NCBI GenBank assembly: GCA_016215705.1 | Contig: JACRIR010000256.1 | Location: forward strand, 1 to 42,054 | Direction: 5' to 3' | Source: Candidatus Poribacteria bacterium | GTDB lineage: Bacteria; Abyssobacteria; SURF-5 | Length of the DNA stretch: 42,054 bases | Part shown: positions 34,650 to 39,943 of the stretch, in pieces | Numbering within the stretch: position 1 is the stretch's first letter | How the letters are laid out: each line of letters starts with the position of its first letter | Notes under the pieces: generated by a model | What the model saw: only the letters and a program-made list of their open reading frames with translations | Told to the model about the DNA's origin: nothing | Database searches by the model: none | Made by a program: the position numbers and the translations under genes

Positions 34650-35027
34650 CTATCTTGATCGCCAATTCCCATGCTTGGTCCAAATCGTTTTGAGTTCCTC
34701 GTATTCATACTGCGGAGGCGGACCGGGAGGATAACGGCTCTCAATGTAGTAGTTTGACGCCTTTTCGCAGAAATCCAGGAAATCCACAAAGCTGTGGTCG
34801 AAGTCGGAAACCTGTTTTAGAAGAGTGTCGAGTTCGTGAATCCTCGGAGGTTTCTTCCCTTGCAGAACGAGATATCCCTTCAGGTACTTCTCGATTGCTT
34901 GCTGGATATGGAACGCGATGGAATCGGTGTACCCTTGTTCATCGTACAGTAACTGCGCAGTTTCGATGTCATGCCGTCCTCGTTCAAACCATTCCAGCGC
35001 TTGCTTTCGAAAGGCGTCATCCCTCAT
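34650..35027 (-). CDS. HEPN-domain protein, likely frameshifted at the C-terminus
   Basis: Starts at ATG 35027 (MRDDAFRKQALEWFERG) with AAAGGAGA upstream, inside the MNT gene's end (11-nt overlap). The HEPN helices are plain: FERGRHDIETAQLLY, DSIAFHIQQAIEKYLKGYLV, HELDTLLKQV, FCEKASNYYIESRYPPG. No R-x4-6-H RNase motif is seen. After PPPQYEYEELK the frame reads TIWTKHGNWRSR and stops. Adding one base at the A4 run (34688-34691) would give NDLDQAWELAIKIEAAPSR and a stop at 34630, the usual last HEPN helix. So either a 1-nt deletion or a sequencing error has cut it. Confidence 0.82.
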   Translation of the reverse strand: MRDDAFRKQALEWFERGRHDIETAQLLYDEQGYTDSIAFHIQQAIEKYLKGYLVLQGKKPPRIHELDTLLKQVSDFDHSFVDFLDFCEKASNYYIESRYPPGPPPQYEYEELKTIWTKHGNWRSR

Positions 35028-35349
35028 AAAGGACTTCTCCTTTCTCGAGTATCTCCTCGACAAAGAAGTCCTTTATCGCTCTTCTGGCCTCCAGTTCCTG
35101 TTCCGTATAAACAAGGGGCGCTACCGGAACGGTCCGGCTCAAGTCTCGAAGGAGCCTTTTGATTTCGGTCCATCGCTCAATTGGTTTCTGGTTGGTGTTT
35201 TTGACTATAAAAAGATCGATGTCGCTGTCCTCGGATGGCTGTCCATAGGCGTAGGAACCAAAGAGTATAATCTTCTTTGGTCGGTATTCTTGCACGATCA
35301 TGTCGACCATGTGATGGATGGTTTCTCTGATTTCTTTGCGGCCGGTCAT
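35017..35349 (-). CDS. MNT-domain nucleotidyltransferase
   Basis: The 110-residue protein has the minimal nucleotidyltransferase active site GSYAYGQPSEDSDIDLFIV (Gly31-Ser32, Asp43, Asp45) and a C-terminal ILEKGEVLYEG. GAGGAAG precedes the ATG. MNT proteins AMPylate and silence their partner HEPN toxin in type VII toxin-antitoxin systems (MntA/HepT). It is coupled to the HEPN gene by an 11-nt overlap, with the antitoxin first. Confidence 0.92.
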   Translation of the reverse strand: MTGRKEIRETIHHMVDMIVQEYRPKKIILFGSYAYGQPSEDSDIDLFIVKNTNQKPIERWTEIKRLLRDLSRTVPVAPLVYTEQELEARRAIKDFFVEEILEKGEVLYEG

Positions 35350-35443
35350 CGGCTGACTTCCTCACCTTCTTAGGGCAAGACTTTCTATTCGATCGGGCCA
35401 ATTATAAGTGAATGTCGGATGAATATCAAGCCCGCCTCGCCAC

Positions 35444-35752: not shown

Positions 35753-36910
35753 GTGAAGAAGGCTGGTCTGTCCGAGGAGCTTGGAAAAAGAGTCGCGGCG
35801 GCGCGAAAGCGGCTCAAAATGAATCAGGAAGCTCTCGCTAGAGAGGCCGGATTCAAATCGCATCAAATCATTTCGCAGATAGAGAAGGGGCGACGGGAAG
35901 TGAAGGTTTGGGAATTATCCGCTCTGAGCCGAATTCTGAGGGTTGAAATGTCGCAGTTGTTGGGAGTGGAGGAGCCAAAGTCTCCGGCGCAGGTTCTATG
36001 GCGACAACGTCCCTCCACCGGCATTGAAGTCAAAGAGGTGGAGTTCTTACAGTGTTGCGAAAGATACCATCGTTTGGAGCAGCTTTGCGGAATCAAATCA
36101 AGCGACGTTTTGCCGCAGTTTAAGGTGGACCCCGCGCGCTTGAAGTACTCGGATGTAGAAAGAATAGCGCATTCCGTTTCGGGGCAAATGCGTTTAGGGT
36201 CTCGCCCGGCGGTGGCTCTGGAAAGAGAACTGGAAGAAAAGTACGGTGTGAAGATTTGGCACATGCCTATCGAGGACGGATCGGCGGCCTCATCAAAAGG
36301 GGATTTCGGCCTGGCCATCCTCATGAATTCCAACGAAGCGCCGTGGCGGCGGAATTCAAGCTTCGCGCATGAGCTTTTCCACCTGATTACATGGGACGCC
36401 GTTCCGCCCCAACAACTGCGCGAAGACGCTTCGCTGTGGGAGCACGTGGAAAAGATGGCGGAAGGCTTCGCGTCGCATCTCCTCTTGCCTGAGCAAGAAG
36501 TCCGCGTGGTTTTCGCGAATCACCTCGATCCCGAAAACAAAACGGTCTCGTTCACCGACATAATCGAAATGGCGAGAGAATTCGATGTGTCGACAACGAT
36601 GTTCTTATACAGACTCAGAAGGCTTCGTCTGATCAAGGAAGAAGACGCGCAGAAAATCCTGGCTGATCCGGATTTCAGGGCGCAAGACAAAAAAACGATG
36701 CGCGCACATTGGTGGACCCCGCCGGAGATTCCGCCGCGTTTTGTCCGCCTGGCGTATCTGGCATACAAGAAGGGCAACCTTGCGCGAGCGAAACTCGCCG
36801 AATACTTGAATGTCAGCTTGATAGATTTGTCCGAGACGCTGCTCGATTACGGATTCGATGATAGCGACACCTACGATGCCCAAATCCATACCGATAGCGG
36901 TAATTCTTGA
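35753..36910 (+). CDS. XRE regulator fused to ImmA/IrrE metallopeptidase
   Basis: The 385-residue protein starts at GTG 35753 with GAGG about 10 nt upstream. An XRE helix-turn-helix (about 8-70: MNQEALAREAGFKSHQIISQIEKG) is followed by a linker and an ImmA/IrrE (M78) peptidase domain with the zinc motif HELFH (206-210) and EGFASHLLLP (about 240, third ligand). In ICEBs1 ImmA cleaves a repressor after DNA damage; XRE-ImmA proteins also act as antitoxin-like regulators. It overlaps the PIN-like gene by 53 nt, so they are coupled. The C-terminal 90 residues (HWWTPPEIPPRFVRLAYLAYKKG) form a helical extension. Confidence 0.9.
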   Translation: MKKAGLSEELGKRVAAARKRLKMNQEALAREAGFKSHQIISQIEKGRREVKVWELSALSRILRVEMSQLLGVEEPKSPAQVLWRQRPSTGIEVKEVEFLQCCERYHRLEQLCGIKSSDVLPQFKVDPARLKYSDVERIAHSVSGQMRLGSRPAVALERELEEKYGVKIWHMPIEDGSAASSKGDFGLAILMNSNEAPWRRNSSFAHELFHLITWDAVPPQQLREDASLWEHVEKMAEGFASHLLLPEQEVRVVFANHLDPENKTVSFTDIIEMAREFDVSTTMFLYRLRRLRLIKEEDAQKILADPDFRAQDKKTMRAHWWTPPEIPPRFVRLAYLAYKKGNLARAKLAEYLNVSLIDLSETLLDYGFDDSDTYDAQIHTDSGNS

Positions 36911-37418
36911 CGCTGATGTCATAATCGAGAGCTTCAGAGTTTCAGCCTGGCAGGCGCTGATCGAGAGAGCGACCGTCTATGTTCCTTCCGTTGTCGCTTA
37001 CCGCGAAGCCCAGTTCTTTGTATCGAAACGCTCCGGCACAATCCCCATAAAACTGTCTCAATATGCCGGGAAAGGACAGATACGGATAGTTGAAGCCACG
37101 GTCGGAGAGCAGCAAATATTTCTCAAGCGCTACGGCGCCGTCTTTCTGCGGTACGAGCTTCATGACGGCGAGAAAGAGGCGTTGGCCCTGCTTTATAGTG
37201 GTCGGATGGAGGGAGTTTTGTTTTGTAGCGGAGATAAGGCCGCAACACAGGCATTGACGATGGTTGATATGAGGCAGTTTGGGATTTCGCTGGGCGAGTT
37301 GTTGGAGAGAATCGGATATCCGAAACCTTTGCAGAGGCACTTCACAAGAGAGGTATTTGAAGAGAGCCTCAACAGAGGTTCGATCTTCAGGATAACAGGG
37401 GACTCGCTTCTGCCGTGA
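36858..37418 (+). CDS. PIN-like domain protein coupled to XRE-ImmA
   Basis: Start is ATG 36858 or 36876; neither has a good ribosome site, which fits coupling to the upstream gene. PIN-like features are VILDADVIIESF (Asp18/Asp20), an acidic HDGEKEALALL helix in the middle, and LFCSGDKAATQAL (third Asp). These acidic residues would bind Mg for RNase activity. About 186 residues. With the XRE-ImmA gene it forms a two-gene unit that looks like a toxin-antitoxin or stress-response pair. The PIN assignment rests on motif spacing only. Confidence 0.65.
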   Translation: MIATPTMPKSIPIAVILDADVIIESFRVSAWQALIERATVYVPSVVAYREAQFFVSKRSGTIPIKLSQYAGKGQIRIVEATVGEQQIFLKRYGAVFLRYELHDGEKEALALLYSGRMEGVLFCSGDKAATQALTMVDMRQFGISLGELLERIGYPKPLQRHFTREVFEESLNRGSIFRITGDSLLP

Positions 37419-37459
37419 CTGGAGTCTCGTAGCAATGGCCCGCCATGAAATCTTGCCAG

Positions 37460-37526
37460 AATCTGTGAATCTCGCAAATCCGTTGACTAAGCAACAAAGA
37501 TGGAATAGAATATGACTCAAGCGAAG
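37460..37526 (+). repeat. Right imperfect direct repeat flanking XRE-ImmA/PIN
   Basis: Matches 35444-35509 through GCAAATCCGTTGAC, CAAAG, GGAATAGAAT and a final CGAAG. It has TTGACT-17-TAGAAT (37483-37511). A shorter relative, AATCCGTTGACTGGACAA, is at about 39748. Confidence 0.7.
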
Positions 37527-37545
37527 ACCTCGTCGGTTGAAGGTT

Positions 37546-37633
37546 TGGGAATGAGCGAGTAACCGCCCGCGAAGCCGTGGAGTTGGCGCGGAAGGTTCGT
37601 GACGCGATCATGGGCATTTTGCGGACAGACTGA
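37546..37633 (+). pseudogene. HEPN C-terminal remnant
   Basis: The frame VTAREAVELARKVRDAIMGI, then LRTD and a stop at 37631-37633, is the last helix of a HEPN protein, with no upstream HEPN part. A close copy (EAVELAQKVRDAVMSVL when one 7-nt insertion is removed) lies at 38988-39070. It lies between the right direct repeat and the second MNT gene. Confidence 0.65.
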
Positions 37634-37760
37634 TTCAGGAAGAAAGAACTGGGGGCACAAGGATCGTGATAATGGCGCAAGGCCAATGCTGTGAATGTGG
37701 TGACCCTTATGCTTTCCGCAGTATGCTGCGTAGAACAGACGCCGTGCGGAGGCGGCAGAT

Positions 37761-38108
37761 ATGATTGTCACGGAAACGCTGGATAAAATCGTTGAACGAA
37801 TCAAGGAGCGTTTTCATCCCGAGAAAATCATCCTTTTCGGCAGTTATGCGCAAGGCGAGGCGACGGAGGACAGCGATATAGACTTGCTGATAGTCGCCGA
37901 AACCGATTTGCTTCCGCGCGAGAGATACCCTGCGGTTCGGCGTCTCCTTTCGGACATACCGGCAAGTTTCGATGTTATTCTCAAGACTCCGGAGGAGTAT
38001 CGACGCCGCCGATCGGTGGTCAACCACATAGTTTATTTCGCCGACAAGTACGGGAAGGTTCTCTATGAACGAGGAGACGCGAGCGACCGTTCGCGAATGG
38101 CTGGATAA
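37761..38108 (+). CDS. MNT-domain nucleotidyltransferase, second copy
   Basis: The 115-residue protein has the active site GSYAQGEATEDSDIDLLIV (Gly27-Ser28, Asp39, Asp41) and VILKTPEEYRRRRSVVNHIV. GGAGG lies 8 nt before the ATG. It overlaps the start of a HEPN gene by 44 nt, the usual MntA-HepT layout. The HEPN partner is interrupted, so this antitoxin is without a full toxin. Confidence 0.92.
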   Translation: MIVTETLDKIVERIKERFHPEKIILFGSYAQGEATEDSDIDLLIVAETDLLPRERYPAVRRLLSDIPASFDVILKTPEEYRRRRSVVNHIVYFADKYGKVLYERGDASDRSRMAG

Positions 38109-38574
38109 GGCGGCAAGTGATTGGACGACCGTCGAGATACTTGCGGCTGATGAACGCGAAGTCACCTTCCATAATAATATCCATGCCTATCAACACGTCA
38201 CAACCAGCCAGCATGCCTTTCGTCACCCTCACATAAGGTATAACAACTTTGTTTGGGAGGACGATGCTCACCAGAAAGGTTTCGCACGCCTTGCAGTCGG
38301 AGGCAGTTTGAACCTTTACCATTCCGGTGGGCTTCAGGCCAAGTTCATCCACGACTCTCTGCGATATCACAGAATTCGTTGCGCCCGTATCCCAAATGCC
38401 GTCGTATTTCCTGGCCGCTTGAACGACATCAGGCGGCGGGGTGCTCGGCGCAAATGATGGGACATGAGGAGTGGGGAAATATGGTTTTGATATCAGGGTC
38501 TCACTGACAAGCTTGTTTGAGCGGCCGGTATAGCGTATTGTGAAGCTCAGTCGTCTTGGGGTTGGAGGGGGCAT
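38020..38574 (-). CDS. Retropepsin-like aspartic protease, 3' end lost
   Basis: Likely start ATG 38574, 7 nt after the DUF5678 stop; the frame also reads from 38733 inside that gene. The 184-residue protein has a Pro-rich N-terminal stretch and a retropepsin fold: IWDTGATNSVIS (catalytic Asp62 in DTGA), then VSIVLPNKVVIPYVRV and CDVLIGMDII. After GDFA (about base 38160) the sequence is antisense to HEPN codons (ISRKYLDGRPITCRLIQ), so the natural last ~15-20 residues are missing. Active proteases of this clan are dimers. It probably works with the DUF5678 protein encoded just upstream. Confidence 0.75.
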   Translation of the reverse strand: MPPPTPRRLSFTIRYTGRSNKLVSETLISKPYFPTPHVPSFAPSTPPPDVVQAARKYDGIWDTGATNSVISQRVVDELGLKPTGMVKVQTASDCKACETFLVSIVLPNKVVIPYVRVTKGMLAGCDVLIGMDIIMEGDFAFISRKYLDGRPITCRLIQPFANGRSRLLVHREPSRTCRRNKLCG

Positions 38575-39070
38575 TAAGGGATCAGGAGAGGACAACTCGT
38601 GAATGGTAGGTTTGAGTGTAGCTTTCGGAGCCGGGTTCACATTTTTGAATAAGAAAGGTTCCCAATTCGTACCGTGCAGACATCTTTTCCACGGCTTCAG
38701 CCTCAGAGTCAAAAACCCCGACAACCTCGGCATGTCGTATAGCTATATATTTGCCGTTGTATCTTTCGACCAGTTCGGACTGCTTCTTCAGATAATACTC
38801 AAATTCTTTTTCCAATACCGAAGGCATTTTGAACCTCTTGGTTCTTCTTTGAAGCCTTGAAACTACTTTTCAAGAAAGACTTTAGCAGTCTTTCCCTTAA
38901 CTCTTCATTCGATTTAATTTTAGCATGGCGTTCTCATGTTGTCAATCCAGGCGCCTTGACATCCAGGCGCCGCCTCGATGCATCACCGGAAACCGCCCGC
39001 GAAGCCGTGGAGTTGGCGCAGGGCGCAGAAGGTTCGGGACGCAGTCATGAGCGTTTTGTGGGCAGACTGA
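38065..39070 (+). pseudogene. HEPN gene interrupted by a DUF5678-retropepsin insertion
   Basis: The 5' part (38065 to about 38160) encodes MNEETRATVREWLDKAASDW, then TTVEILAADERE, the first HEPN helices. It starts inside the MNT gene. The 3' part (about 38977-39070) encodes DASPETAREAVELA and, after removing a 7-nt insertion (GCAGGGC, about 39017), QKVRDAVMSVLWAD and stop, the last helix. Between them about 815 bp of foreign sequence holds the minus-strand DUF5678 and retropepsin genes. The central HEPN region (FHxQQAxEKxLK) is absent, so sequence was lost as well as gained. Confidence 0.7.
38582..38827 (-). CDS. DUF5678 domain protein
   Basis: The 81-residue protein has the DUF5678 pattern: a short helix EFEYYLKKQSELVERYNGKY, then IAIRHAEVVGVFDSEAEAVE, then YELGTFLIQKCEPG. 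AAGAGGTT lies before the ATG. The function of DUF5678 is unknown. It lies 7 nt before the retropepsin-like gene on the same strand, so they form a two-gene unit. Confidence 0.85.
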   Translation of the reverse strand: MPSVLEKEFEYYLKKQSELVERYNGKYIAIRHAEVVGVFDSEAEAVEKMSARYELGTFLIQKCEPGSESYTQTYHSRVVLS

Positions 39071-39084
39071 CTCTCAGGAAGACT

Positions 39085-39585
39085 TCAAATGATTTTGACA
39101 AATCTGAAGAATGAGGTGCACTGCCGTCCAAAACAAAAGAATCTGAACCGCAGAGGACGCTGAGGTTCGCGGAGGAAAAGCAGCCAACTTCCTGGCAGTA
39201 GTTCCAACGCAACTCCATTCCGGAGCGCGTGTCTGCAACAGAATTCTGCAGTCGACCCCTCTTGAAGTATATGAATGATATTGTTGCAGAGTAAAAATAG
39301 GTATTGTGTCCCCGGAATATGCTTGCGAAGCTCTTCATTTGTTCTCTCACGTTCATTCTCTTCCGTTTCATTCTCGTAACTTTTCTTTGCTAGTTCTTCT
39401 GCAAACTGTCGGTCTCCTGAAGGCGCTGCGTCATTGAGTTGTATCTTTGCGCATCGCCCTTCATTGCCAGTTTCCGCAACAGGAATCTGGAGTGATGCTC
39501 CACAATTCTTGCATCGCCCCTTTTTTTCTGCGTATTCATCTTTGACCTTGTGTTTCTGTCCGCATGCGCAAGTGAATTCAATCAT
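39085..39585 (-). CDS. Zinc-ribbon protein of unknown function
   Basis: Start at ATG 39585 (MIEFTCACGQKHKVKDEYAEK) with GGAG upstream, giving 166 residues. The first 40 residues form a CxC..CKNC zinc ribbon (FTCACGQ..GRCKNCGASLQIPVA). Residues about 50-85 are charged helix. From about residue 90 the sequence (GTQYLFLLCNNIIHILQEG and beyond) is unlike a folded domain and overlaps repeat-like DNA, so the gene may be truncated by rearrangement. Confidence 0.5.
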   Translation of the reverse strand: MIEFTCACGQKHKVKDEYAEKKGRCKNCGASLQIPVAETGNEGRCAKIQLNDAAPSGDRQFAEELAKKSYENETEENERERTNEELRKHIPGTQYLFLLCNNIIHILQEGSTAEFCCRHALRNGVALELLPGSWLLFLREPQRPLRFRFFCFGRQCTSFFRFVKII

Positions 39586-39943
39586 GGTTTTTCTCCGTCG
39601 AGTGCGCAATAGCTAAAGCATCACTGGCAACGGCTGCAACAGCAAAGATGCCTGCTTACGGATGAATGTGACGATTGATACTTTCTGTACCAACAGCGAT
39701 TTTATGTAACTGTATTCACAAAAGTCAACCCTGTTCGATAAATCAGAATCCGTTGACTGGACAATGCGAGGCCCCGACCGGCGGGAGAGGTGATATTCCC
39801 ATTTGAGATTGATTTCTGCGATGTGCTTTGTTAAAATGAATTAACCATTGCGTGGGCGGCTAGGGCAAGCTACCCGAAAGAGTGATCTACCCACTTTTGC
39901 CGCCCACAGTCCTATCATGGTAGAAGTATTGTGAGGTAGAACG
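39586..39943. other. Gene-free interval
   Basis: Has a relative of the direct-repeat core (AATCCGTTGACT, about 39748) and the inverted repeat at 39852-39907. No gene seen. Confidence 0.5.
39852..39907 (+). ncRNA. Putative structured leader, three-way-junction-like
   Basis: Arms GTGGGCGGC (39852-39860) and GCCGCCCAC (39899-39907) pair perfectly and enclose two short hairpins: GGGCAAGCTACCC and AAGAGTG/CACTTTT. The element ends 36 nt before the start of the downstream gene. It could be a regulatory RNA leader or a DNA recognition site. There is a faint likeness to c-di-GMP riboswitch motifs, not enough to name it. Confidence 0.4.

What the first reader, a model, noticed from the sequence alone, without database searches (positions are those of the whole stretch)
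38160..38977. DUF5678-retropepsin unit inserted into a HEPN gene
HEPN 5' and 3' ends flank about 815 bp with two minus-strand genes; the retropepsin reading runs into antisense HEPN codons. A gene pair with no transposase has landed in a toxin gene. It may be a little-known mobile or selfish module of a protease with a small partner.
Basis: partly seen in the sequence, partly recalled or inferred. Interest (0 to 1): 0.65.

Follow-up and report, generated by a model that had tools for sequence, protein, structure and literature searches.

The report
Broken DUF5678–retropepsin cassette in HEPN remnant
A decayed copy of a widespread, apparently undescribed two-gene unit (a small protein plus an HIV-protease-like enzyme, found in many bacterial phyla and in phage genomes) sits in the wreck of a toxin gene; the local copy is probably dead, but the gene pair it belongs to travels as a unit and may be a new protease-based accessory or defence system.

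Summary
DUF5678 (38582-38827, minus) is intact and lies 7 nt upstream of a retropepsin start (38574). The protease keeps its DTGAT and GMDII motifs but stops matching its intact relative at ~38156, where an MNT-HEPN gene's 5' piece ends. The last core strands, and the SEC-C zinc motif most relatives carry, are lost. The HEPN lacks ~70 central residues; its 3' piece (~38970-39068) is frameshifted, and a second copy of that 3' end lies at 37561-37643. No terminal repeats or target duplication were found: a rearrangement scar with two damaged genes.

The larger idea holds. The pair occurs in at least 23 named phyla (454 loci in ~85,000 species genomes, 108 viral contigs). DUF5678 lies directly upstream of 177 of 183 retropepsin ORFs. 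Of 29 DUF5678 loci picked by family alone, 20 have a retropepsin next door, one as a fusion. Related copies share only the ~0.85-0.96 kb cassette between unrelated flanks; two prophage contigs share cassette plus integrase at 99.6% with unrelated upstream DNA. No paper on the pair was found. Best reading: a mobile protease-partner module; toxin-antitoxin or phage defence is plausible, unproven.

The parts
38582..38827 (-). DUF5678 gene, 81 aa, intact, with the conserved C-terminal tail YTQTYHSRVVLS; an AAGAGG purine-rich stretch precedes the ATG
   Evidence: PF18929 E 3.4e-6; aligns end to end with 16 partner proteins (A2) and 55 others (A6); ribosome-binding-like stretch read from the sequence
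38156..38574 (-). Retropepsin (clan AA aspartic protease), truncated: keeps WDTGATNSVIS and LIGMDII, lost everything after GDFA
   Evidence: PF13975 E 8.4e-7; alignment A1; DNA alignment to intact relative L049 ends at 38156
38020..38155 (-). Non-homologous tail of the retropepsin reading frame, antisense to HEPN and MNT codons, up to the stop
   Evidence: no aligned relative carries it
37761..38108 (+). MNT nucleotidyltransferase (antitoxin of an MNT-HEPN pair), reading frame intact
   Evidence: PF01909 E 9.7e-14; NCBIfam MntA E 2.6e-9, below its curated cut-off; homologues in 48 of 290 genomes, own included
38065..38157 (+). HEPN 5' remnant, about 31 codons
   Evidence: profile positions 5-29 of MNT-linked HEPN proteins, 15.6 bits
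38828..38969 (-). Upstream region of the DUF5678 gene, lower in G+C, with a tandem ATCCAGGCGCC (38945 and 38961) at the HEPN border
   Evidence: the repeat count is not above chance for the whole window
38970..39068 (+). HEPN 3' remnant, frameshifted
   Evidence: profile positions 110-131, 11.7 bits once the frameshift is bridged
37561..37643 (+). Second copy of the HEPN 3' end, upstream of the MNT gene
   Evidence: 80% identity over the stretch; 29 nt identical then 83% over 52 nt; profile positions 114-130

Best explanation
The locus is a rearrangement scar. A two-gene DUF5678-retropepsin cassette came to lie, in opposite orientation, in the remains of an MNT-HEPN toxin-antitoxin gene pair, and sequence was lost at the join: the HEPN lost its middle and the protease its C-terminal part (shown by alignment; order of events inferred). 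The DUF5678 gene still looks expressible; the protease here is probably inactive (inferred from loss of core strands). The cassette belongs to a widespread accessory module in which a small DUF5678 protein made just ahead of the protease acts as its dedicated partner (coupling and one natural fusion shown; direct binding inferred). Proposed working: DUF5678 docks on the retropepsin, and its conserved C-terminal tail (YTQxFHSRVxF) acts as a pseudo-substrate or regulated cleavage site that restrains or directs the enzyme until a trigger such as phage infection or stress releases it; in SEC-C-bearing members the zinc motif would position the enzyme on its target (all inferred). The module spreads by phage carriage and ordinary recombination, without its own transposase.
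For: Truncation and abutting borders. Single copy in its genome. DUF5678 directly upstream of 177 of 183 retropepsin ORFs (count includes some duplicate contigs); in 148 non-redundant pairs median gap 0 nt and 73 overlapping. Reverse test, DUF5678 picked by family alone: 20 of 29 fetched loci have a retropepsin next door, one a single fused ORF (L255). Breadth: 454 confirmed loci in genome contigs, 108 in viral contigs; 23 named phyla among 69 labelled loci. Neighbours of chromosomal copies are nearly all different (124 Pfam families, top count 3 of 140), so no fixed partner beyond the pair. In viral contigs neighbours include integrases, CI-like repressors and DNA methyltransferases. Cassette-only homology: L050/L053 89% over 964 nt, L082/L111 83% over 884 nt, chromosomal L098 vs viral L130 77% over 867 nt, nothing else aligned. 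L137/L138 share cassette plus a tyrosine-integrase gene at 99.6% with unrelated upstream DNA. Tree labels change 24 times between viral and genome loci (mean 41 if shuffled) and 40 times between phyla (mean 51 if shuffled): some inheritance plus repeated transfer. Model of the L057 pair read through its stop: mean pLDDT 88.7, pTM 0.79; matches Rickettsia APRc (5c9f, E 1.4e-6) and lentiviral proteases.
Against: The HEPN pieces are short and matched only by a custom profile; the whole-genome PF05168 search did not list them. The tail of DUF5678 is modelled with low confidence and is not docked in the linked model (residues 76-86 under pLDDT 50), so the pseudo-substrate idea has no structural support. 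SEC-C is present in 91 of 148 pairs only. Nine of 29 DUF5678 loci show no retropepsin (one is at a contig end). The pair is not a PADLOC system; the nearest model, PDC-M08B, matches the protease only weakly. The order of insertion and deletion is not determined, and assembly error is not excluded.
Confidence: 0.7

Rival explanations
1. Clean insertion of a mobile DUF5678-retropepsin element into one HEPN gene.
For: HEPN pieces in the same orientation on both sides of ~815 nt; the pair is mobile elsewhere.
Against: About 70 HEPN residues are missing, the protease is cut at the same border, no target-site duplication, terminal repeat or transposase was found, and a second HEPN 3' end lies nearby. 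Insertion followed by deletion would still fit.
Confidence: 0.12
2. The cassette lies between the relics of tandem MNT-HEPN copies rather than inside one gene; the 5' and 3' HEPN pieces come from different copies.
For: A second HEPN 3' end, 29 nt identical then 83%, lies 1430 nt upstream, ahead of the MNT gene.
Against: Only one MNT gene and one HEPN 5' piece were seen at this spot; the two readings are not clearly separable from sequence alone.
Confidence: 0.3
3. Assembly chimera joining the cassette to the HEPN region.
For: Draft genome in 270 contigs; both genes break at the same left border.
Against: Both border regions are unique in the assembly apart from the HEPN 3' duplicate and a short dispersed repeat further downstream; the frameshift in the HEPN 3' piece is decay that a chimera would not explain.
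Confidence: 0.1
4. The phage-borne protease is a virion maturation protease, and chromosomal copies are prophage leftovers.
For: A few viral copies neighbour portal-like, head-maturation or head-morphogenesis genes.
Against: More neighbours are lysogeny genes or unassigned; chromosomal copies lie among housekeeping genes with no phage structural family among the most frequent; near-obligate DUF5678 partner and, in many, a SEC-C tail.
Confidence: 0.1
5. DUF5678 and the retropepsin form a toxin-antitoxin or phage-defence device: the protease harms the cell or attacks a phage protein when DUF5678 control is lifted.
For: Small upstream partner, tight overlap, patchy spread, phage cargo next to integrase or repressor, position here in a cluster of MNT-HEPN and RosmerTA-like genes.
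Against: No activity data; chromosomal neighbours show no defence or toxin-antitoxin family among the most frequent; not in PADLOC as such.
Confidence: 0.35

Closest known systems
APRc of Rickettsia conorii (retropepsin-like aspartic protease, PDB 5c9f)
   Same: Single-domain retropepsin fold in a bacterium; best structural match to the L057 pair model (E 1.4e-6)
   Different: Only ~14% identity in the structural alignment; a DUF5678 partner or SEC-C tail was not looked for in APRc
RimB / RloA retropepsins of Pseudomonas (PMC12239564)
   Same: Operon-borne bacterial clan AA proteases with functional partners
   Different: Partners are the ATP-grasp proteins RimK/RloC and RloB, not DUF5678; the words 'DUF' and 'prophage' do not occur in that paper's text
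PDC-M08B, candidate defence protein of PADLOC
   Same: A retropepsin-like profile; best catalogued defence-linked match (E 7.4e-6 to the L041 protease, 3.4e-4 to the window protein)
   Different: Weak, partial match; none of the DUF5678 proteins matched a PDC-M08 partner model
Toxin-antitoxin pairs (MNT-HEPN, RosmerTA)
   Same: Two small adjacent genes, patchy spread, here in the same neighbourhood
   Different: No shown toxicity or neutralisation; a protease instead of a nuclease or nucleotidyltransferase

Membership tests
DUF5678 (PF18929) | Profile match over the curated cut-off | tested here: met
   27.2 bits against 23.2
Retropepsin, clan AA (PF13975) | D-[TS]-G catalytic motif and profile match over cut-off | tested here: met
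   WDTGATNSVIS; 29.9 bits against 28.2
Retropepsin, clan AA (PF13975) | Complete domain, including the C-terminal strands | tested here: not met
   Homology ends at GDFA (38156); relatives continue through TNxxGKTxFSFRxPS
Retropepsin, clan AA (PF13975) | Proteolytic activity that depends on the catalytic Asp | not testable with these tools
   needs protein
DUF5678-retropepsin pair, WDTGAT subfamily | DUF5678 directly upstream, same strand | tested here: met
   7 nt between stop and start; 177 of 183 retropepsin ORFs
DUF5678-retropepsin pair, WDTGAT subfamily | SEC-C zinc motif at the protease C-terminus (common, 91 of 148; not universal) | tested here: not met
   Absent here, where the C-terminal part is truncated
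Transposable element | Transposase, terminal inverted repeats or target duplication | tested here: not met
   None found at the borders; no gene other than the pair in the insert
MNT-HEPN toxin-antitoxin pair | Intact HEPN next to MNT | tested here: not met
   MNT intact; HEPN reduced to 5' and 3' pieces
Toxin-antitoxin system | Toxicity of one product, neutralised by the other | not testable with these tools
   needs expression tests
PADLOC PDC-M08 | Matches to both partner models | tested here: not met
   Only M08B, weakly

The most novel reading that the evidence does not exclude
DUF5678 plus retropepsin is a new kind of protease-based toxin-antitoxin or anti-phage system, spread across bacteria by phages, in which a retrovirus-type protease is held by a small partner with a pseudo-substrate tail and released on infection.
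Probability: 0.3. Interest if true: 0.85.

Novelty: new variant of a known kind. Interest (0 to 1): 0.5.

Why it matters
Retropepsins are best known from retroviruses; few bacterial ones have an assigned role. A tightly coupled protease-partner pair seen in at least 23 bacterial phyla and in over a hundred viral contigs, exchanged as a ~0.9 kb cassette, and absent from the papers searched, is a concrete, testable candidate for a new accessory system. It would also give DUF5678, a family of unknown function, a role: dedicated partner of retropepsins.

Tried and rejected
Search of the window's own phylum, only three genomes held, and of plasmids: no relatives. First viral scan with the window protein alone found nothing; the WDTGATNSVIS pattern and an alignment query did. 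Sister-species comparison in the genus of G226 (2 of 15 species have a protease match, one of them across a stop) gave no clean empty site because the flanks, with a transposase-like gene nearby, were not conserved. Solved-structure sequence search: no DUF5678 relative, and only weak tubulinyl-Tyr carboxypeptidase hits for the protease, taken as chance. Fold search with the DUF5678 model (pLDDT 81.6): nothing at E under 0.001. Rfam: nothing in 36800-39800. Distance correlation between partners only 0.41 in a 60-pair sample, not used as evidence. Literature: DUF5678 occurs in one unrelated paper; retropepsin with prophage in one unrelated paper; 'aspartyl' does not occur in the 2009 survey of type 2 toxin-antitoxin systems (PMC2701414). 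The library holds only open-licence papers.

Full report
What is in the window. On the minus strand, 38582-38827 encodes an 81-residue DUF5678 protein and, from 38574 downward, a retropepsin that keeps its DTG and GMDII motifs. On the plus strand lies an intact MNT nucleotidyltransferase gene (37761-38108), overlapped by the first ~31 codons of a HEPN gene (38065-~38157) and, beyond the two minus-strand genes, a frameshifted HEPN 3' end (~38970-39068). A profile built from nine MNT-linked HEPN proteins places these pieces at positions 5-29 and 110-131 of 137, so roughly positions 36-108 are gone. A second HEPN 3' end, 29 nt identical and then 83%, lies at 37561-37643.

The protease is broken. 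In alignment A1 all relatives continue after GDF or GDL with a stretch like TNxxGKTxFSFRxPSxxIDF, and most then carry a SEC-C motif. DNA alignment with the intact relative L049 (53% protein identity) stops at 38156, where the HEPN 5' piece ends. The remaining ~45 residues of the reading frame are antisense HEPN and MNT codons. In the model of the intact L057 pair the lost part contains two strands of the fold, a helix and the SEC-C region. I infer that this copy is inactive. The DUF5678 gene is complete.

Insertion or scar. No transposase, no terminal repeat and no matching repeat at both borders were found. Both the host gene and the cargo lost sequence. The simplest account is that the cassette came to lie here by ordinary or illegitimate recombination, with deletion at the join, in an MNT-HEPN region that was duplicated and decaying. 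I cannot order the events or exclude an assembly error, since reads are not available.

What the pair is. The window protease alone found eight carriers among 386 genomes, the window's own included. A motif pattern and an alignment found 454 confirmed loci in genome contigs and 108 in viral contigs, of which 80 each were fetched. In 177 of 183 retropepsin ORFs above threshold a DUF5678 ORF lies directly upstream on the same strand (some contigs are counted twice); in 148 non-redundant pairs the median gap is 0 nt and 73 overlap. Starting instead from DUF5678 by family, 20 of 29 fetched loci have a retropepsin next to it, of several divergent types, and L255 has both in one ORF. Gene fusion and near-obligate adjacency are the best available evidence that the two act together.

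Mobility. Chromosomal neighbours are almost all different. Viral neighbours include integrases, CI-like repressors and methyltransferases. Several pairs of loci share only the cassette: L050/L053, L082/L111, L097/L115, chromosomal L098 with viral L130. L137 and L138 share cassette plus a tyrosine-integrase gene at 99.6% over 2192 nt (to the end of both loci) while the upstream DNA is unrelated. On the protease tree, viral and genome labels change 24 times (shuffled mean 41) and phylum labels 40 times for 69 rows (shuffled mean 51), i.e. some inheritance plus frequent transfer.

How it may work. The L057 pair, read through its single stop as one chain, gave mean pLDDT 88.7 and pTM 0.79, and matched Rickettsia APRc and lentiviral proteases. 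DUF5678 alone (pLDDT 81.6) has no significant match among solved structures. Its C-terminal tail is conserved in sequence (exact SRV near the end in 89 of 148) but modelled with low confidence and not docked. A tail that is conserved yet flexible suggests a pseudo-substrate or cleavage site for the partner; that is inference. Toxin-antitoxin or phage-defence use fits the phage carriage and patchy spread but has no direct support.

Known or new. Each protein family is in Pfam; the pair was not found in the papers searched and is not a PADLOC system, the nearest being the weakly similar PDC-M08B. I rate it a new variant of a known kind, with a degraded copy in this window.

Noticed in passing
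window 35753-37418 (+): HTH-M78 gene matching PADLOC RmrA (E 1.7e-21) followed by an unassigned 186-aa gene: a RosmerTA-like pair.
   Followed up: partly
window 34650-35373: Another MNT-HEPN pair on the minus strand (HEPN listed), so the region is a cluster of toxin-antitoxin-type genes.
   Followed up: partly
window 39119-39182: A ~60-nt repeat (GAACCGCAGAGGACGCTGAGG...) with about 30 copies scattered over the genome at 77-97% identity.
   Followed up: no
window 38945 and 38961: Two copies of ATCCAGGCGCC 16 nt apart at the border between the DUF5678 upstream region and the HEPN 3' remnant.
   Followed up: no
L255 1075-1704 (-): Natural fusion of a DUF5678 domain and a retropepsin in one 209-aa ORF.
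   Followed up: partly
L254 1133-1463: DUF5678 followed by a retropepsin start that breaks off after ~40 codons: another apparently decayed copy.
   Followed up: no
L117 4377-6141: Two DUF5678-retropepsin pairs in tandem.
   Followed up: no
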